Source of the DNA: Neoroseomonas lacus
GTDB taxonomy: Bacteria > Pseudomonadota > Alphaproteobacteria > Acetobacterales > Acetobacteraceae
NCBI RefSeq assembly: GCF_014644535.1
Contig: NZ_BMKW01000006.1
Span: 62,001 to 126,000 of the forward strand
Direction: 5' to 3'
Length of the DNA: 64,000 nt
Positions within the stretch are counted from its first letter, which is position 1. Each line of letters begins with the position of its first letter. The notes beneath the pieces were generated by a model. That model was not told the DNA's origin and searched no databases. It saw only the letters and a program-made list of their open reading frames with translations. A program made the translations under genes and the position numbers. Below are positions 41,024-50,675 of the stretch, in pieces.

Positions 41024-44000
41024 TTACGCCGCGAGCGACGCCACCCCTCGCACCGCCACCGTCACCGCCGCGAGGTCCCGCGCCGCTGCCGCTTCCTGCA
41101 CCAGCGCGGCGACCGAGGCCGCGCGCGCTCCATCCGGCGCCCCACCGGCCAGTCGTTGCGCCGCGAGCCGCATCTGGCTCGCGGCCACTTCCTCGACCAG
41201 CGCGGCCTTGGCACGCGGCCCGAAGGCGCCCGGCGCCGGTGCCGCGCCGATCCCCGCCCGCAGCGCATCGAGCGCATAGGCTTCCTCCACCGCCGCCCAG
41301 GCCGTCGCCGCCGTGGCCGCATCGACCCGGGCACGCGCCGCGAGCCGCACCACGGCCGGCGCGGCCGCCAGGCGCGGCGCGGCGGCGGCAAGCGCGCCAG
41401 CCTCCGCCGGCAGCCCTTCCGCGAGCGTTGGCGCATGCGCTGCGGCGGCACTGGCCAGCGCGGCGATGCCCGGCCGCAAGGTCGCGAGCGCCTGTTCCAG
41501 CGGCTGCGCCGGCGCGCCGAGCAGGTCTTGCGCCGCCGCTTCCTGAAGCCGCCGCAGCGCCAGCAGCGCATCGAGCCGCGCCTCGGCCGAGGCCGGTGAG
41601 GCATCGATCGCGTCGCACGCGGCTTCGAGCCCGAAGGCCTCGGCGGCGAGCAGCGCAGCGCGGCAGGCGGCGACCGGCTCGGCCGCCATGGTCAGCCGCG
41701 CCAGCGCCGCGCAGCCCAGCCGGTTGGCGACCGCATTGGCGACGATGGTGGCGATCAGGTCCCGCCGCAGCCGATGCCGCTCGATGAAGCGCGCATAAGT
41801 CGCCTGCAACGGTTGCGGGAAATAGGCGACCAGCGCCGGCAGCAGCGCCGGCTCATCCGGCAGCGAGGACTCCACCACCGCATCGGTCAGCCACAGCTTG
41901 GCGAAGGGCAGCAGCGCGGCGATCTCGGGCCGCGTCAAGGCATCGCCAGTGCCCATCCGCCGGCCCATCGCCGCCGCATCCGGCAGCCCGGCCACGGCGC
42001 GGTCGAGCAGCCCGGCATGCTCCAGCGTCTCCATCAGCGCCGCCTGGGCGGACAGATCCTCCGCCCCACCCATCTGTTCGAGCGTGACGGCCAGCGATTG
42101 CTGGTGGTTGTCGCGCAGTACCAGGCCGGCGACTTCATCCGTCATCTCGCGCAGTAGCTCGTCGCGATTGCGCCGCGTCAGCACGCCTTCGCCCTCGGCA
42201 TCGGCAAGCAGGATCTTGATGTTCACCTCATGGTCGGAGGTGGAGACACCGGCGGAATTGTCGAGCGCATCGGTATTGATGCGAATGCCCTGCCGCGCCG
42301 TCTCGATGCGCCCGGCCTGCGTCACGCCGAGATTGGCGCCCTCGCCGACGACGCGCGCGCGCACCTCGTTGCCATCGATGCGGATCGCGTCATTGGCGCG
42401 GTCGCCCGCATCGGCCTGTGATTCCGTCGAGGCTTTCACATAGGTGCCGATGCCGCCGAAATAGAGCAGCTCCACCTCCATGCGCAGGATCGCCTGCATG
42501 ATGGCGGTGGGCTCGGCGCGGTCGCTGGCAATGCCGAGCATCGCCTGCGCCTGCGGGCTCAGCGCAATGGTCTTGGCGTTGCGCGCGTGGACGCCGCCGC
42601 CCGTGCTGATCAGCGACGCCGTGTAGTCCGCCCAGGACGACCGCGGCAGCGCGAAGATCCGCTCGCGCTCGGCATAGGACGCCTCAGGGTCCGGATCGGG
42701 GTCGAGGAAGATGTGCCGATGGTCGAACGCCGCCCGCAGCCGCGTCTTTCGGGAGACGAGCAACCCATTGCCGAACACGTCCCCCGACATGTCGCCGACG
42801 CCGACCATGTCGAAGGGCGCATCCTGCACGGAACGGCCCAGCGTCTCCTGGAAATGCCGGTCGATCATCACCCAGGCACCGCGCGCGGTGATGCCCATGC
42901 CCTTGTGGTCGTAGCCCGCGCTGCCGCCCGAGGCGAAGGCATCGCCTAGCCAGAAGCCGTACTCGGCGGACAACCCATTGGCGATGTCGGAGAAGGTCGC
43001 CGTCCCCTTGTCGGCCGCGGCGACGATGTAGGGATCATCCCCATCCCGCCGCACGATCCCCGGCGGCGTGACGACAACGGTACCCTGGTAGTTGTCGGCG
43101 AGATCGAGCATCCCGCGCACCAGCATCTTGTAGCAGGCGATGCCCTCGGCCTGGAACGCCTCGCGGTCGCTCATCGGCGGCGGATGCTTCAGCACGAAGC
43201 CGCCCTTCGCCCCGGTCGGCACGATGATGACGTTCTTCAGCCGCTGCGCCTTCATCAGCCCGAGGATCTCGGTGCGGAAATCCTCCCGCCGATCGGACCA
43301 GCGGATGCCGCCGCGCGCCACCGGCCCGGCGCGCAGATGGCAACCTTCCATCCGCACGCCATGCACGAATATCTCGCGCCACGGCCGCGGCAGCGGCATC
43401 TCGCCGGCCTTCGCGCTGTCCAGTTTGAAGGCGATGGTGTCCTTGCCCTGGTAGAAATTGGTCCGAAGCATCGCATCGAGCAGCACGCGCAGCCGCGTCA
43501 GGATGCGGTCCTCATCGGGGTTCTCGATGCCGTCGAGCAGCATCGTCCAGGCGGCCTCGGCCTCGGATGTGTCGCGGTCGGTCGCCGCCGGGTCGAAGCG
43601 ACGGCGGAAGATCTCGACAAGCAACCGCGCCGCTTCCGGCTGCACAGCCAACGCCGCCTCGACGCTCGCCTGCGCGAACGGAAACCCGACCTGCTTGGCC
43701 CAGCGGAACATCGCCCGCAGCAGCCAGCATTCGCGCCAGTCGAGCCCCGCCCGCAATACGAGCCGGTTGAAGCCATCCGCCTCCGCCGCGCCATCGAGCA
43801 GCGCCGAGAGCGCACCGAGGATCTCGTCGAACCGATCCTCCGGGCAATCCGCCCCGGCTTGCAGCCGATAGACATGCAGCACCACCGGCGGCCCCCCAGC
43901 CGGCGCCATGTGATAGGGCTGTTCCTCCACCGCCCGCAGGTCGAGGCTCTCGAACAGTGGCAGCGCATCGGCCAGCGGCAGCGGCCCGCCGGCATTGACC

Positions 44001-45709
44001 AGCCGCAGCGTCAGCTCGCGCGGCCCGGCCCCGGGCGCGCGGCGCAGATCGGCCCGCGGCCGCCCCGCCGCGATGGCGCGCTCGGCGAGCAGTATGTCAG
44101 CCACGCCCTGCGCCGCGCCGACGGTCTCGCGATAGGTCGCGGGAAAGCCCTCCCGCCACCGCGCCAGCCGCCCGGCCGCCTCCGCCTCGCCCTGGGTGGC
44201 GGCGAGCGCCTCGGCCAGCCTTTCGCCGAAGCCACGCGCGACCTGCGCGATCGCCGCCTCCAGCGCCACAGTATCCACCGCCGGCACCTCGCCGGGCCTG
44301 GTCGCGATGATGTAGTGCACCCGCGCCAGCGGCGCGTCGCCCAGCGCGATGTAGAAGGCCGACAGACGACCGCCGAAGGCGCGCGCCAGCATCTGCCCCA
44401 CGCGTTCGCGCAGCCGGGTGTCGAAGGTGTCGCGCGGCAGCCAGGCGATCGCCGAGACGAAGCGCTCGAACGGATCGGGCCGCACCGCCAGCGCGGCGCG
44501 CGGGCGGATCGTCAGGTCGAGCGCACGGCGCGCCCCTTCCAACACCACCTCGGCCGGCGCCTGGAACAATTCGTCGCGCGGCCAGGTGTCGAGGATGTTG
44601 CGCAGCGCCCGCCCGTCATGGCTGTCCGCCTCGACGCCGGCGATCTCCAGGATATGGTCCACCTTGCGCCGCAGCAGCGGGATCGAGCGCGGGTTGCGGT
44701 TATAGGCCGCCGCCGCGAACAGCCCGAGGAACAGCCGCCCGCCCGCCACCTTGCCGGCAGCGTCGAAGATGCGCGTCGCCACCACATCGGCATGCTGCGG
44801 CCGATGCACCGTGGAACGCATATTCGCCTTGGCGACGGCCACCGGCGTAGGCAGCGACAGCGTCGCATGCACCGCCGGCGGGATCGCCGAGAGGTCGCGC
44901 AGCGCATCGAAGACCGGCAGCGAAGGATCGCGCAGCAGGCCGAGATTTTCCTCCGGCACGACGGCGATCACGCCATCCGCGCGCAGGGTGAAGCGCCGAT
45001 GGCCGAGCAGGACGAAATTATCCTCCGCCAACCAGCGCAGGAACGCGACGGCCTCCTCGGCATCCGGCCCGCCCGGGGCGGCGACCTCGGCCTCCGCGCC
45101 GCGCAGCAGGCCGAGCATGGTCGGGAAGGCGGAGGTCGCCGCGCGCACATCCGACAGCGCGCCAGCCAACGCCGCTTCCAGCGCGTCCAGCGCCTCCGCC
45201 GGACGCGCCGCCGGGCCCGACAGCACCGGCCCGGCGGCACCGAGGGTGACGCGCATCATGCTCTCGCGCCCGCCGCCCGCGGGGTCGAGGGCCAGCAGAT
45301 GCCCCGCCGCGTCGCGGCTGACGCGCAGCACCGGATGCAGCAGCGAGGTCACCGCCCGGCCATGCAGCGCCAGGGCGGCGAGCACCGTATCGACCAGGAA
45401 GGGCATGTCGTCGGTGACGATCTCGGCGACCGGGCGGGGGCCGATGTCCGGCCCGGCCGGTAGCAGCCGGACCTTGGCGGTCCCCGGCGCGCGATCCGCC
45501 GCGAAGCCGTACAGGCTGGCGGCCGCGGCGGCGAGTGTCTCGGGCGGCGTGGCGGCGAGTTCGCCGGTCGGCACCGCGGCATGCAGCACCCGCAGCAGCG
45601 TGGCGGCCCCGTGCGGCAGGCCGGGCGCCTGGGCGGCCAGCACATCGGCGGCGGCGCGCAGAACTTCCTCCCGCGTGGTGTCGGGAAGGGCGCGAATATC
45701 GTCCGCCAT
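41024..45709 (-). CDS. gdhB: NAD-specific glutamate dehydrogenase (large, about 170 kDa class)
   Basis: A 1561-residue enzyme that deaminates glutamate to 2-oxoglutarate with NAD+, linking amino-acid use to the TCA cycle. It belongs to the GDH-180 class: long N-terminal ACT-like and helical regions, then a central catalytic core with [21 protein letters not shown], the substrate-binding [17 protein letters not shown], NYQG…VVTPPGIVR, and [20 protein letters not shown], followed by [15 protein letters not shown] and a large C-terminal domain (about 1150-1561) rich in Ala. Length is normal for the class. The start has GGAGGAACC upstream. It is a single-gene unit, between a convergent porin and a divergent oxygenase gene. 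Confidence 0.97.
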   Translation of the reverse strand: [1561 protein letters not shown]

Positions 45710-45819
45710 GGCGGTTCCTCCAGCTGTTTATTGGCCCCCGTGGAACCCTGCGCCAGGGCTCGCCCCGGCGTCCAGCCCGACGCTGACGCGCTCACGACTT
45801 CCAGGCTAGAGTTCACGCC

Positions 45820-47040
45820 ATGACGATGACGTTGCAAGACCTGCTCGCCCCGATCACCCCCGAGCGCTTCTTCGCCGAGTTCCACGACCGGCAGCCGCTG
45901 CATGTCCAGGGCCACCCGGCGCGCTTCGCCGAGGTGCTGGACTGGGCCGCCATCAACCGCCTGCTCGACATGACGCATATCTGGTCCGAGACCAGCTTCA
46001 GGCTGGTGCTCGACAGCGTCGCGGTGCCGCCCCCCCAATACAGCGCCAAGGCCACCTCGCGCGACGGCGCGCCGGTACTCCAGCCGGTCGCCGCCAAGGT
46101 GCAGGACTGGGTGCGCCGCGGCGCCTCGGTGGTGATGAACGACGTGGACAGCCTGACGCCGGGCCTCGCCGCCGTCTCCGCCGCGCTCGAAGATGCCGGG
46201 CTGGGGAAGGCGCAGGCCAATGTCTACATCTCCTTCCAATCGCACAAGGCGTTCCATTCGCACTACGACACCCACGACGTCTGGGCGTTGCAGGTGGAAG
46301 GCGAGAAGACCTGGAACATCTGGGAAGGCCGTGCCGACTACCCAATCCCGCACCCCATCTTCCGCGGCCAGAAGCAGGACCATCACGACCGTGCCCGCGG
46401 CGCACTGCGCGAGCAGGTGGTGCTGAAGAAGGGCGACATCCTCTACCTGCCGCGCGGCTGGTATCACGACGCGCTGGCCGAGGCGCCGAACTCCGTCCAC
46501 ATTGCCTATGGCGTCCACGCGCCGCTCGGGATGGACGTGCTGAACATCCTGTCCGAACGCGCACTGTATGACGCGGCATTCCGCAAACCCCTGCCACGGC
46601 AGGACGGCACGGCGGCGGCGCGATATGCGCTGTCGCAACAATTCGCGAGCCTCGGCGCGCGGCTGACCGAACTGGCGAAGGACCCCAAGGTGATCGAGGT
46701 GCTGGAAAGCTTCATCCGCGACTACCGCTTCCATCGCGGCGGCTTCGACCTGCTCGCCGCGCGCGACGGCGCGGCTCCCGCGGCGCCCGCCGAGCGCGCC
46801 GCCGGCCCCCGCCTGCGCGTCGCCGAGCCCGGCGCCAAGACCGTGCGGCGCGGCAACGAATTCGGCCTCAAGACCGCCGGCGGTGTGATCCCCATGCCCT
46901 TTGGCGAGGTCGAGGCCACCGCCTGGGTGCTCGCCCGGCCGACGGTAACGGAGGCAGACCTCGCCACCGCCTGGCCGGCGGTTGATGCGCCGGGGCTGAT
47001 CGCGCGGCTGCGCCAGGCCGGGGTGCTGGTCGGGTCATGA
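45820..47040 (+). CDS. JmjC/cupin-domain protein-type oxygenase
   Basis: This 406-residue Fe(II)/2-oxoglutarate oxygenase-like protein has the metal triad His148-x-Asp150 (SHYDTHDVWALQ) and His214 (LPRGWYHDA) in the arrangement of the RoxA/NO66 ribosomal oxygenases. A dimerisation helix region and a C-terminal winged-helix-like part (about 305-406) are also suggested, as in ribosomal oxygenases that hydroxylate ribosomal protein residues. Target unknown. The ATG at 45820 or the next one (two codons later) can be used. The downstream OmpA-like gene overlaps it by four bases (ATGA), which puts a cytosolic oxygenase and secreted proteins in one transcript. Confidence 0.87.
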   Translation: MTMTLQDLLAPITPERFFAEFHDRQPLHVQGHPARFAEVLDWAAINRLLDMTHIWSETSFRLVLDSVAVPPPQYSAKATSRDGAPVLQPVAAKVQDWVRRGASVVMNDVDSLTPGLAAVSAALEDAGLGKAQANVYISFQSHKAFHSHYDTHDVWALQVEGEKTWNIWEGRADYPIPHPIFRGQKQDHHDRARGALREQVVLKKGDILYLPRGWYHDALAEAPNSVHIAYGVHAPLGMDVLNILSERALYDAAFRKPLPRQDGTAAARYALSQQFASLGARLTELAKDPKVIEVLESFIRDYRFHRGGFDLLAARDGAAPAAPAERAAGPRLRVAEPGAKTVRRGNEFGLKTAGGVIPMPFGEVEATAWVLARPTVTEADLATAWPAVDAPGLIARLRQAGVLVGS

Positions 47041-47585
47041 AGCGCCTCGCCCTTTTCCTCGCCCTGCTGACGACACCGGCCATGGCCGAGGTCGCCGCCA
47101 TCAACTGCGTCGGCGCGCTGCAACTGGAAGACGACGTCTATTCCATTCCCTTCGCGCGCGGTTCGGCGCGCATCGGCGACGCCGCCCGCTCGCCCCTCGC
47201 GGCGGTGGTCGAAGCGCTCGCCGCCGACCGCTCGCGTGTCGCCTGCGTGCTCGGCCATGCCGGGCAGGAAGGCGGCGCGACCACCTCCATCCGCCTTGCC
47301 GCCGAGCGCGCCCGGGCGGTGGCCACGGCGCTGGCCGGCCTCGGCGTATCGCGCGACCGGTTGCGGACGGAGGCGCGCAGCGCGCAGTTCAGCCCCCGCG
47401 TGCGGGCGGAGACGCCGCCATCGCGCACGGTGACGGTGGTGGTGCTGCCGGCAGCCGGGCCTGAGCCCGCGCCAGCACCAACGCCGGCACCGGCACCCGC
47501 GCCGGCAGCAACCCCAGCGCCATCGCTCGCGCCCGAACCCGCGCCAGCGCCCGACGCCGCCCCGCCACCCGCCCGCGCGCCCTGA
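47037..47585 (+). CDS. OmpA-like periplasmic protein with an Ala/Pro tail
   Basis: A 182-residue secreted protein (signal MKRLALFLALLTTPAMA). Residues about 35-138 form an OmpA-C-like peptidoglycan-binding fold: IPFARGSARIGDAARSPLAA, VVEALAADRS, and LAAERARAVATALAGLGVSR. The Asp-x-Arg motif is only partly kept. The last 45 residues are a Pro/Ala repeat (PAPAPTPAPAPAPAATPAPS and so on), a rigid spacer or cell-wall-crossing tail. It starts within the stop of the oxygenase gene. Whether it binds peptidoglycan is not shown. Confidence 0.72.
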   Translation: MKRLALFLALLTTPAMAEVAAINCVGALQLEDDVYSIPFARGSARIGDAARSPLAAVVEALAADRSRVACVLGHAGQEGGATTSIRLAAERARAVATALAGLGVSRDRLRTEARSAQFSPRVRAETPPSRTVTVVVLPAAGPEPAPAPTPAPAPAPAATPAPSLAPEPAPAPDAAPPPARAP

Positions 47586-47805
47586 CGCGGGCGCCATCCG
47601 CGCCGCCTGGGCCACGCCTGTCCAAGGCCCGGTCGGGGCGGCCGGCGACGACCCGCCGCAGCCAACGTGGCCCGCCGGCACCACGCCGCACAAACACCCG
47701 CCACGCATGCGTTTTTCCCCCGCACCGTGTCCTGTCAGCGCTTGCGGAGCGTCCGGCGCAACCGTCATCCTGCCCGACGCAAAACTCCCCCCCGAAAGGC
47801 CCTTC

Positions 47806-49260
47806 ATGCGCCTGCCTTCCCTGGCGATGGCCGTCTGCATCGCCCTGGCCCCGCTATCAGCCCTGGCCCAGCCCACGCCGCGCGCCACGACCCCCCAGCC
47901 CGCGCCGCGCGAGCGTGAAGCCACCATCACCAACCAATCCGGCCAGACCTTGCGGGAGCTTTACGCGGCCCCCCCCGGCGCCGCCGATTTCGGGCCCGAC
48001 CTGCTCGGCTCCGACACCGTGCCCGACCGCGGCACCTTCCGCGCGCGCCTCCCGGGGGCGACCTGCGACCTCGAATTCCGCGCCGTGTACCAGGACGGCA
48101 CCGAGGATCGTCGCCGGCAGAACATCTGCCAGAACCGTCGCGTGCAGTTCGGCGACACCGCCATTCCCCTGCGCGAGGTGACGGTGCGCAACGAGACCGA
48201 CGCCATCCTGCTGCAGATATTCGCCGCCCTGCCCAACGCGCCGGGCCGAGGCCCGGACCGGCTCGGCGAGAATGTCATCCCCGCCGGCCGCGAGTGGCGC
48301 GTCCGCCTCGGCCGCACGCGCGACTGCGTCTTCGACGTGACCGCCGTCTTCGAAGATGGCGAGGAGGAAACGCGCCCGGCCCTGAACATCTGCCGCACGC
48401 CGCGCGTCACCTTCGGGGACCCCAACGCGCCGCAGCGCGAGGCCCGCATCGCCAACACCGGCGATCGGGCGATCCGCGAATTCTTCGCCTCCACCCGCGC
48501 GCCGCTGGCCTGGGGACCGGACCGGCTGGGCACCGACCTGCTGCCCGCCGGCACCGACTTCACCCTGCGCGTCCGCGGCACCGCCTGCCTGTGGGACCTG
48601 CGTGCCGTCTATGAGGATGACGCGGAGGAAGTGAAACAGGGCGTCAACCTCTGCACGACGCGGGAAGTCGCCTTCGACGGTTCGGGTGCCCCGCGCGCCC
48701 CGGAACGCCGGGTGACGCTGGTCAACCGCCACGGCGCCGCGGTGCAGGAGGTCTATCTGTCCGGCAGCGCCGAGGATGATTGGGGCCCCGACCGACTGGG
48801 CGAGGAGCCCCTCCCGCGCGGCCAGCGCCGCGAGGTCGCCGCCCGGCTGCGCGACTGCGAGGCCGACCTGCGCATTGTCTTCGAGGAACGCCGCGCCGCC
48901 GAGGAACGCGCTTCCATCAATCTGTGCGAGAACCCGGTCATCGTGCTGCGGCCCGGCTGGACCCTGGTGGAGACGCTCGACCAGGATGAGCAGCAGGATC
49001 GTGGCCCGCGCCCCGGCAGCGTGCGGCTGCGCAACCGGGCCGAGGTTCCGGTCGCCGAGCTCTACGCGTATCCGCCCGGTGGCGAACGTGGGCCGGACCG
49101 GCTGGGCCGCACGGTTCTCGGCGTCGGCGAGGCGCTCGACTTCGCGCCCCCCGAGGGCACCGGCTGCCTCGCGGAGCTGATGGTGGTGTTCCGCGACGGG
49201 CGGGAGGTCGTCCTGACCGGTCTCGACCTCTGCGCCGGCGAGGAGCTGGTGCTGCAATGA
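47806..49260 (+). CDS. Exported protein with five tandem approximately 87-residue repeats
   Basis: A 484-residue secreted protein (signal MRLPSLAMAVCIALAPLSAL, cut near ALAQP) that I cannot place in a named family. It consists of five repeats (about 37-120, 122-208, 210-296, 299-383 and 405-484). Each repeat has an N-terminal strand (VTLVN, ARIAN, VTVRN), the motif GPDRLG (63-68 as GPDLLG, 149, 237, 327, 429), a Cys about 24 residues later, a D-x-R-x-V-[YF]-[EQ]-D-G strand, and a second Cys 21-23 residues after the first (87/108, 174/196, 261/283, 351/374, 454/476). The ten Cys probably form one disulfide per repeat. The period of about 87 residues suggests a beta-sandwich array in the periplasm or on the surface. 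Confidence 0.82.
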   Translation: MRLPSLAMAVCIALAPLSALAQPTPRATTPQPAPREREATITNQSGQTLRELYAAPPGAADFGPDLLGSDTVPDRGTFRARLPGATCDLEFRAVYQDGTEDRRRQNICQNRRVQFGDTAIPLREVTVRNETDAILLQIFAALPNAPGRGPDRLGENVIPAGREWRVRLGRTRDCVFDVTAVFEDGEEETRPALNICRTPRVTFGDPNAPQREARIANTGDRAIREFFASTRAPLAWGPDRLGTDLLPAGTDFTLRVRGTACLWDLRAVYEDDAEEVKQGVNLCTTREVAFDGSGAPRAPERRVTLVNRHGAAVQEVYLSGSAEDDWGPDRLGEEPLPRGQRREVAARLRDCEADLRIVFEERRAAEERASINLCENPVIVLRPGWTLVETLDQDEQQDRGPRPGSVRLRNRAEVPVAELYAYPPGGERGPDRLGRTVLGVGEALDFAPPEGTGCLAELMVVFRDGREVVLTGLDLCAGEELVLQ

Positions 49261-50108
49261 AGCGCCTGGCCCTGGCGCTGCTGATGGTCGTGGCGGCGCC
49301 GGCGCTGCCGCTGTTCGCCGCCCGGCCGGCGGCTGCGCAGGGCGTGCCCGAGGCGTTGCGCGGCACCTGGGCCCGCGGGTCCTGCGCGGCACCCGAGGCG
49401 CTGTTGCACGTCACCGCGCGCGGCGTGGTGCGGCTGCCGGCGGAAGGGCCGGCGCGGCTGGTGCGCTTCCGGACGGTGCGCGACCAGGCGGGCTGGACCT
49501 TGGGCGTCGGCGCCGGGGCGGAGGCGCCGCGCGTCATGTTGCGCCCGGCCGAGGATGCGATCGACCTCGCCGAACCGGATGCCAAGCTGCGCGACGACCG
49601 GCTGCCCGGCGAGACGCGGGTGACGCGCTGGTTGCGCTGCCAGGCGCCGGGGGTGGGCAACGCGCTGCTGCATGGCGAAGGGCTCGCCTTCCTCAGCACG
49701 CTCGAGCGGCTGGAGGCGGCCTGCCAGGCCGGACCGCCGGCCTCCTGTCTGGCTGTGCTGGTCCGCGAAGCCGATGTCTCCGGTGACCACAAGCTGAGCA
49801 TCGCCGAGGTGGCGCGACTGTTGCGCGGCGCCGCCTGGGCGCTGGCGCTGCAACAGGGCAGCGAGCCGGAGGTGATCGCCGTCACGACGGGGCTGGGCAG
49901 CATGGCGGCGCTGGCGGCGGCGCGGCTGGTGGTCGCCAGCCTGGATTACGACAATGACGGACAGCTCACGACGGCGGAATTGGCGCAGGACCGCATGGCG
50001 TTCCCCCCGGGCGCGGGCAGCCCGGATGGCCAGCCCGGTACGATCGAAGGGTTGGCCGAAGGCGCGGGGCTGTTGCGCAACCTGATCGAGCGGCTGGCGG
50101 TGGAATGA
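49257..50108 (+). CDS. Exported EF-hand protein
   Basis: A 283-residue secreted protein (signal MKRLALALLMVVAAPALPLF, cut near AAAQG). Two calcium-binding loops are clear: Asp173-Glu184 (D-V-S-G-D-H-K-L-S-I-A-E) and Asp230-Glu241 (D-Y-D-N-D-G-Q-L-T-T-A-E), each with acidic or Ser residues at positions 1, 3, 5, 9 and 12. Residues 30-130 form an unrecognised all-beta region with two Cys (43 and 128). The start overlaps the repeat protein stop by four bases, so the two secreted proteins are made together. Role unknown; calcium sensing or stabilisation is inferred. Confidence 0.8.
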   Translation: MKRLALALLMVVAAPALPLFAARPAAAQGVPEALRGTWARGSCAAPEALLHVTARGVVRLPAEGPARLVRFRTVRDQAGWTLGVGAGAEAPRVMLRPAEDAIDLAEPDAKLRDDRLPGETRVTRWLRCQAPGVGNALLHGEGLAFLSTLERLEAACQAGPPASCLAVLVREADVSGDHKLSIAEVARLLRGAAWALALQQGSEPEVIAVTTGLGSMAALAAARLVVASLDYDNDGQLTTAELAQDRMAFPPGAGSPDGQPGTIEGLAEGAGLLRNLIERLAVE

Positions 50109-50675
50109 GCGGAGGGCGCCCCCGGAAAGGTGCGCTGCCCCCGTGCGGACTTGGCGCCGTTACCGCCAAGCCCGCCAGATCACCGCGTCATCTCGAAGAC
50201 GGGCCGCACCGCCTTGCCGCGCGACCTGCGCTGAGGCGGGTCTCGGCACCGTGACATGATGGCGGCAGTGGATTTCCGCCGATGTTCCTGATATGTTCCA
50301 ATCATCAAGCGGCGTATTGCGCCTGCGACGGGTGGATGGCCGGGCCGCTTAAAATCCTAAAACGCTAAAATCCTAAAGTGTGCAAAAACAATAGTTTGAG
50401 CAGTTTAATGCCAATATCCTGCCGGCGACGTTCGCTGCATTTCCAGCGAATGGGCCGACATGCAGGCCAGTGAAACCAAGGGCTGGTGGCCTGGGAACGA
50501 CGCCCGCAGGATTTCGGAATCAGGACGTCGAAGCGGATTGCGTTCACGCCGACGACCACCTCCGCTCCGGGCCATTGTTTCTGCAGGCATCTGCACCTGA
50601 TCAGCACGCTCGGAGGCCGATCCCCTGGATGGGCCGTCCAGCCTGGCCCGGTGCCGCCAGATTGACCCACGGTTT
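50109..50675. other. Intergenic region with an AT-rich tandem repeat
   Basis: No gene is supported here; a 104-codon frame on the minus strand (50365-50679) has no recognisable features. The AT-rich part has two copies of a 16-base unit TAAAATCCTAAAACGC (50350-50365 and 50366-50381, the second imperfect at its end), giving AAAATCCTAAA at 50351-50361 and 50367-50377. A hairpin repeat follows. Confidence 0.5.

What the first reader, a model, noticed from the sequence alone, without database searches (positions are those of the whole stretch)
47806..49260. Five-fold repeat protein of unknown family with a Cys pair and GPDRLG motif in every repeat
Repeats of about 87 residues keep a GPDRLG hexapeptide and two Cys at 21-23 residue spacing. 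No named family was recognised. The repeat is long enough to be a folded beta domain with its own disulfide, so the protein is probably a string of small domains outside the cytoplasm.
Basis: seen in the sequence. Interest (0 to 1): 0.65.

Follow-up and report, generated by a model that had tools for sequence, protein, structure and literature searches.

The report
Five-module secreted beta-sandwich scaffold protein
This bacterial gene encodes an exported protein made of five small beta-sandwich modules, each with its own pair of cysteines, from an unnamed domain type that is widespread in Proteobacteria; it is usually paired with a gene for a calcium-binding exported protein, which suggests a scaffold for holding partners outside the cytoplasm.

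Summary
Window 47806-49260 encodes a 484-residue exported protein with five repeats (31-41% identical, each pair above all its shuffles) and a Cys pair 21-23 residues apart in each. The hexapeptide is GPDRLG in four repeats, GPDLLG in the first. No Pfam or NCBIfam family and no PDB sequence matches the protein. AlphaFold2 gives one repeat as a six-stranded all-beta module (pLDDT 94.4). Module number and order are conserved: same-position modules are more alike across genera than modules within one protein. A secreted two-EF-hand protein follows with a 4-base overlap in 40 of 42 named loci, but is missing in 3 of 18 five-module loci found without the search pattern. The domain also occurs singly in other Pseudomonadota and fused to trypsin-like peptidase and TIR domains. 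Its fold resembles the VHL beta-domain, cytolysin domain 4 and VPS13 VAB modules, below significance; a sequence link to VHL was inconclusive. Most likely it is an extracytoplasmic protein-binding scaffold, commonly serving the calcium protein. The anatomy is well supported; the function is inferred.

The parts
47806..49260 (+). five-module repeat gene, 484 aa
47806..47868 (+). signal peptide (about aa 1-21), cleavage site judged by eye; followed by a low-confidence linker to aa 36
   Evidence: sequence; pLDDT under 50 for aa 1-3 and 5-32
47914..48153 (+). module 1 (aa 37-116), GPDLLG, Cys87/Cys108, Asn43
48169..48417 (+). module 2 (aa 122-204), GPDRLG, Cys174/Cys196, Asn129
48433..48681 (+). 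module 3 (aa 210-292), GPDRLG, Cys261/Cys283, Asn217; repeat modelled alone at pLDDT 94.4
48703..48966 (+). module 4 (aa 300-387) with the conserved RPGWT segment at its end, Cys351/Cys374, Asn307
48961..48999 (+). low-confidence linker between modules 4 and 5 (aa 386-398)
   Evidence: pLDDT under 50
49012..49257 (+). module 5 (aa 403-484), best conserved module, GPDRLG, Cys454/Cys476, Asn410
   Evidence: mean pairwise identity 0.635 against 0.516-0.569 for modules 1-4 in 18 proteins
49257..50108 (+). partner gene: exported 283-aa protein with two EF-hand loops (DVSGDHKLSIAE, DYDNDGQLTTAE) and four Cys invariant in 16 aligned partners; its ATG overlaps the repeat gene's stop by 4 bases (ATGA)
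47037..47585 (+). upstream OmpA-family protein; neighbour in some relatives, not part of the constant pair
   Evidence: PF00691 E 3.9e-11
45820..47040 (+). upstream JmjC-type cupin protein; neighbour in some relatives, not part of the constant pair
   Evidence: PF08007 E 1.9e-23

Best explanation
The gene encodes an exported, fixed-length scaffold of five beta-sandwich modules, each probably locked by a disulfide. Shown by sequence or prediction: the modules, the invariant Asn and Cys pairs, the constant module number and order, and the overlapping EF-hand gene in most relatives. Inferred: the modules fold in the periplasm or outside, each disulfide ties the hairpin of strands 4 and 5, and the array works as a protein-binding adaptor whose common partner is the co-made calcium-binding protein, with module 5 and the segment before it as the likeliest docking site. 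Single copies of the module would serve as extracytoplasmic binding or sensing parts on other proteins, such as trypsin-like peptidases and membrane TIR proteins.
For: Repeat anatomy and significance. All-beta models, mean pLDDT 83.7 for the whole and 94.4 for one repeat. Asn and second Cys in 109 of 109 non-redundant domains, first Cys in 106; 362 of 365 distinct copies have both Cys, and 3 of 3 exceptions have a Cys moved to before strand 1, where none of the 362 has one. Five modules in all 13 genus members with the full-length gene, own genome included, and in 42 of 42 named loci if L126, which the profile cut into seven pieces of which five bear the Cys pair, is read as five. Order kept: in 13 five-module proteins same-position identity is 0.47-0.61, different-position 0.28-0.44. 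Partner with the 4-base overlap in 40 of 42 named loci; L116 has offset 0 and L121 is cut by the contig end. Over 43 regions the partner is the only neighbour found throughout, in 41, the other two being contig ends, while upstream gene sets differ. Domain fused to Trypsin_2 and TIR_2. Module 5 most conserved.
Against: No binding was tested and no complex could be predicted. Of 18 five-module loci not chosen by the search pattern, three (L056, L059, L060; the last two from one genome) have no partner among the genes I called nearby, so the pair is not obligatory. 10 of 22 congeners have no full-length match (three of these ten are under 90% complete), so the gene is not essential to the genus. 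The arrangement of modules relative to each other is uncertain (pTM 0.55). Module 5 could be conserved for folding rather than docking. The disulfide is inferred from conservation; the three exceptions look like one subfamily and may be a single event.
Confidence: 0.5

Rival explanations
1. The array is a structural spacer or surface stalk, as in adhesins and pilins made of beta-sandwich domains, rather than an adaptor; the EF-hand protein stiffens or cross-links it with calcium.
For: Foldseek matches of the whole model include several extracellular strings of beta domains, such as BcpA, PitA and a biofilm-associated protein.
Against: Stalk proteins often vary in repeat number and have near-identical repeats (general knowledge); here the number is constant and the modules diverged early and kept their order. 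By eye the protein has no sortase motif or second hydrophobic segment.
Confidence: 0.25
2. Each module binds a small ligand, glycan or lipid, and the protein is a multivalent binder or sensor; fusions with peptidase and TIR domains read out ligand binding.
For: Conserved DxLG (with WG before it in most relatives) in the long loop between strands 2 and 3; single-domain relatives are common; fusions with TIR and trypsin-like domains.
Against: No ligand-binding family matched. The loop motif could be structural. No pocket analysis was possible because model coordinates are not exposed.
Confidence: 0.2
3. The module regulates exported peptidases (inhibitor or targeting part), since copies sit in front of trypsin-like domains.
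For: Domain and trypsin-like domain in one protein in 9 loci (L069, L079, L194-L200), 5 of them with a separate single-domain gene nearby (L079, L194-L197).
Against: The five-module gene has no peptidase as a constant neighbour.
Confidence: 0.05

Closest known systems
VHL beta-domain (Pfam PF01847), human pVHL and its bacterial relatives
   Same: Small beta-sandwich: the single-repeat model aligns over 76-77 of 87 residues at 2.7-3.0 A, Z 6.6-7.5. VHL has a conserved, buried Asn78 whose side chain holds a turn (passages of PMC3556325); the end points of the alignment (model 1 to chain residue 71) would place model Asn8 on it (inference, end points only). Bacterial VHL sequences also keep an invariant Asn in their first strand region.
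   Different: Z under 8, which the tool says may be only a common arrangement. PF01847 finds nothing in this genome, and profile-profile comparison is not significant (probability 0.8-4.4%). The bacterial VHL alignment shows neither the Cys pair spacing nor the DxLG loop of this family.
VPS13 adaptor-binding (VAB) domain, PDB 7u8t
   Same: Beta-sandwich modules set end to end, one strictly conserved Asn at the end of strand 1 of every module, and the last module with its junction as the most conserved surface and partner site (passages of PMC8978259; invariant Asn in each repeat also in passages of PMC10053439). Top Foldseek match of the whole model, E 6.4e-8; VIA Z 5.7 over 252 residues at 16.7 A.
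   Different: VAB has six nine-stranded modules and is cytosolic and eukaryotic; here five modules of six assigned strands, exported, with Cys pairs. The whole-model match may reflect any string of beta domains, since many unrelated ones follow it in the list.
2mca (Eubacterium rectale protein), AlgF N-terminal domain, domain 4 of cholesterol-dependent cytolysins
   Same: Small beta-sandwiches tied with VHL for the single repeat (Z 7.2, 7.4 and 6.7-7.4); 2mca is also the best VIA row of the whole model (Z 7.5, 90 residues, 3.5 A).
   Different: No significant Foldseek E-value for the single repeat (best 0.033) and no sequence match.

Membership tests
VHL beta-domain (PF01847) | match to the curated profile | tested here: not met
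   no match at E up to 10 in the own genome; PF01847 is not among the families matched by any of 24 domain members at E up to 1. The profile does find bacterial VHL proteins in 6 of 398 genomes.
VHL beta-domain (PF01847) | homology by profile-profile comparison | tested here: inconclusive
   score 16.55, probability 4.4%; 3 of 99 column-shuffled VHL profiles reached it; smaller alignments gave 0.8-1.7%. Positive control: the bacterial VHL profile finds human VHL at E about 2e-8.
VHL beta-domain (PF01847) | same fold | tested here: inconclusive
   Z 6.6-7.5, 2.7-3.0 A over 76-77 residues, tied with other folds
VPS13 VAB domain | string of beta modules with an Asn at the end of strand 1 of each | tested here: met
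   Asn43/129/217/307/410 end strand 1 in the model and are invariant in 43 aligned sequences
VPS13 VAB domain | module fold and topology (nine strands) | tested here: inconclusive
   six strands assigned in the model; module-level structural comparison undecided
VPS13 VAB domain | binding of Pro-X-Pro partner motifs | not testable with these tools
   needs a binding assay
EF-hand proteins (partner gene) | two 12-residue loops with canonical acidic positions | tested here: met
   loops read directly; EF-hand_1 E 8e-4, 19.2 bits, under Pfam's cut-off of 25.4; loop positions conserved in 16 partners with exceptions such as the first loop of L057
any named Pfam or NCBIfam family (repeat protein) | match above chance | tested here: not met
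   0 families at E up to 10 for the whole protein; 24 diverse domain members gave four single-member hits, best E 0.011

The most novel reading that the evidence does not exclude
The module is a secreted, disulfide-stabilised bacterial branch of an ancient beta-sandwich superfamily, marked by a buried Asn at the end of strand 1, that also gave rise to the VHL beta-domain and the modules of the VPS13 adaptor-binding domain; the five-module protein would be a periplasmic adaptor that works like the VAB domain, with partner docking at the last two modules.
Probability: 0.15. Interest if true: 0.7.

Novelty: new variant of a known kind. Interest (0 to 1): 0.45.

Why it matters
It defines an unnamed exported domain found in 47 of 398 sampled Pseudomonadota genomes and 48 of 100 genomes, one per genus, of its own family, own genome included in both; both are lower bounds because only part of the candidates was scored. 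This genome alone has nine genes with it. Fusions to TIR and peptidase domains point to binding or sensing outside the cytoplasm. The fixed five-module version with an overlapping calcium-protein gene gives a clear experimental handle. If the Asn signature reflects common descent, it would tie two medically important eukaryotic domains (VHL and VPS13 VAB) to a bacterial exported family.

Tried and rejected
Sequence searches of PDB with the protein and with the profile of the diverse domains gave nothing. The profile of the five-module repeats gave 5 rows, the best a leucine-rich repeat protein at E 1.8e-4 over 43 of 86 positions with no single stretch passing the limit; I judged these chance or composition and set them aside. 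In the structural comparison of the single repeat, 7u8t (VAB) was not among the 50 rows listed; this does not exclude it. Viruses: no relative in viral contigs or phage records, and no significant fold match in BFVD (best E 0.029). Plasmids: none for the whole protein; single-domain relatives gave 2, 6 and 2 records, annotated as hypothetical or not at all, one of them a weak match in Nostoc. Promoter and terminator scan of 47400-50400: none found, with shuffle means of 0.1 and 1.2. In one search the profile-profile part failed and repeated an older result; it was redone and those values are not used. The upstream genes (glutamate dehydrogenase-like, JmjC, OmpA-like) were considered as part of the unit and dropped because they change between groups. 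PADLOC matches of the TIR and peptidase fusions cover only the TIR or peptidase part, so no defence role is claimed. The neighbour clustering mixed antisense frames; only its domain counts and lengths are used. Rows left out: the single-repeat alignment A8 has 5 window repeats and 113 of 205 repeats listed, where L126 had been skipped. In one search my gene caller missed the repeat gene of L133, so that cluster shows 42 of 43.

Paper searches for an existing description found none: domain or taxon terms; bacterial VHL; PMC9002001, an in-silico study of a bacterial VHL-domain protein, seen as listing only; VAB in bacteria. Searches were used to find the VAB and VHL papers. Many subscription papers are not in that library, so this is weak evidence of absence.

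Full report
What is there. The window lies in a 6.4 Mb genome. The named records closest by this protein are Neoroseomonas, an Acetobacteraceae genus. The ORF 47806-49260 encodes 484 residues: a signal peptide (by eye) and five repeats. The repeats are 31-41% identical over their local alignments, and each of the ten pairs scores above all 300 shuffles. Each has a Cys pair 21-23 residues apart. The hexapeptide is GPDLLG in repeat 1 and GPDRLG in the other four. Nine columns are invariant among the five: one Asn, five positions of the hexapeptide, a Val and the two Cys.

Family search. Pfam and NCBIfam give no family for this protein at E up to 10, and PDB sequences give none. Twenty-four diverse members of the domain give only single-member hits at E 0.011 or worse. 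So those libraries hold no named family for it.

Distribution. The own genome holds ten more copies of the domain outside this gene, in eight genes. In the genus, 12 of 22 other genomes have a full-length orthologue at 76-85% identity, and 21 of 22 have at least one match at E up to 1e-5. All 12 have five modules, with the Cys spacing kept save one-residue shifts in the last repeats of four. In the family, 48 of 100 genomes have the domain at E up to 1e-6; in the class sample 25 of 240 and in the phylum sample 47 of 398 at E up to 1e-5, own genome included each time. These are lower bounds, as only part of the candidates was scored. In 46 fetched loci from the class and phylum searches the domain gene is a short open frame of 105-184 residues from its first Met in 44.

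Signature. In 109 non-redundant domains the Asn (model residue 8) and the second Cys are in all, the first Cys in 106, the Leu of DxLG in 103 and its Asp in 98. Among 365 distinct copies, 362 have both Cys. The other 3 lack the first and all carry a Cys right before strand 1, where none of the 362 has one. This fits a disulfide with a shifted partner; the three look like one subfamily, so it may be one event.

Structure. With 43 sequences the whole is predicted at mean pLDDT 83.7, pTM 0.55, with five all-beta modules. Repeat 3 with 118 repeat sequences gives pLDDT 94.4 and pTM 0.85, strands 2-8, 14-20, 42-47, 53-60, 65-72, 78-81. Asn8 ends strand 1; Cys52 and Cys74 flank the hairpin of strands 4 and 5, well placed for a bond (inference from strand positions). 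Foldseek with the whole model ranks the VPS13 VAB structure 7u8t first (E 6.4e-8), followed by many unrelated strings of beta domains; VIA-align ranks 2mca first for it (Z 7.5). The single repeat has no significant Foldseek match (best E 0.033). For it VIA-align ties VHL, a cytolysin domain 4, the AlgF N-terminal domain and 2mca at Z 7.2-7.5, a level that the tool says may be only a common arrangement.

VHL and VAB. Both known domains have a conserved buried Asn early in the fold. [quoted passage not shown] For VHL, PMC3556325 (passages) describes Asn78 as conserved, buried and holding a turn. Bacterial VHL proteins found with PF01847 (6 of 398 genomes) keep such an Asn and match human VHL at E about 2e-8. 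The domain studied here does not match them significantly: probability 0.8-1.7% with smaller alignments and 4.4% with 109 sequences, where 3 of 99 column-shuffled profiles did as well. So it resembles them; membership is not shown.

A conserved array. Of the 42 named loci, all have five modules by my reading; L126 came out as seven profile pieces, two of them without Cys, which I read as split modules. The scan patterns lay in module 5 and just after module 3, so those positions are enriched by selection. Conservation by module was therefore computed on 18 proteins found by similarity or profile searches: mean pairwise identity 0.532, 0.549, 0.516, 0.569 and 0.635 for modules 1 to 5. In 13 five-module proteins, modules at the same position are 0.47-0.61 identical, at different positions 0.28-0.44, and within one protein 0.34 on average. 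In the tree modules 1, 4 and 5 form clades, the last two with one module of a four-module relative inside; modules 2 and 3 are not cleanly resolved. The array is thus old and shows no sign of reshuffling. Two-, three- and four-module relatives exist in other genera; in three three-module forms the first two modules look most like modules 3 and 4, by small margins for the first.

The partner. The next gene (49257-50108) encodes an exported protein with two EF-hand loops and four Cys that are invariant in 16 aligned partners; L057 has a degenerate first loop. Its start overlaps the repeat gene's stop as ATGA. In named loci an in-frame start with this overlap is present in 40 of 42; L116 has offset 0 and L121 ends 115 bases after the gene (the script took the in-frame start nearest the stop). 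In gene clusters over 43 regions, window included, the partner occurs in 41; L096 and L121 are contig ends. The upstream genes change between groups. Against this, 3 of the 18 five-module proteins not chosen by pattern (L056, L059, L060) have no partner among the genes I called nearby.

Fusions. In other proteins the domain precedes a Trypsin_2 domain (two proteins scanned; nine loci by similarity) or follows a TIR_2 domain and a hydrophobic segment read by eye (five loci). In all five TIR loci a second domain frame follows, and in five of the nine peptidase loci a single-domain frame lies nearby. Most of these regions were fetched because earlier hits came in pairs, so these counts are not frequencies.

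Mechanism. An exported array of a stable module in constant number, diverged modules each with its own conserved residues, an overlapping partner gene, and fusions to signalling or peptidase domains fit a protein-binding scaffold best. Module 5 and the conserved RPGWT segment at the end of module 4 are the likeliest docking region. These steps are inference; there are no binding data.

Novelty. I found no name for this domain in the libraries and no paper in the searches listed under Tried and rejected. Strings of exported beta-sandwich modules are a known kind; the Asn and Cys signature, the five-module form and the pairing with a calcium-type protein make it a new variant.

Noticed in passing
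L080:4845-6233 (own genome, contig C11): TIR domain, hydrophobic segment and C-terminal copy of this domain in one protein, followed by a second domain gene; the pair recurs in four congeners (L190-L193). A candidate membrane TIR sensor.
   Followed up: partly
L079:5334-6422 and L079:6506-6856 (own genome, contig C13): Domain fused to a trypsin-like peptidase, with a single-domain gene just upstream; similar fusions in L069 and L194-L200.
   Followed up: partly
L154-L160: VHL beta-domain proteins in Pseudomonadota, in 6 of 398 genomes; several look exported by their N-termini (by eye).
   Followed up: partly
window 41024-47585: A glutamate-dehydrogenase-like gene (named by eye), a JmjC cupin and an OmpA-like gene lie upstream and stay together in some relatives; the JmjC and OmpA genes overlap by 4 bases.
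   Followed up: no
   Followed up: no
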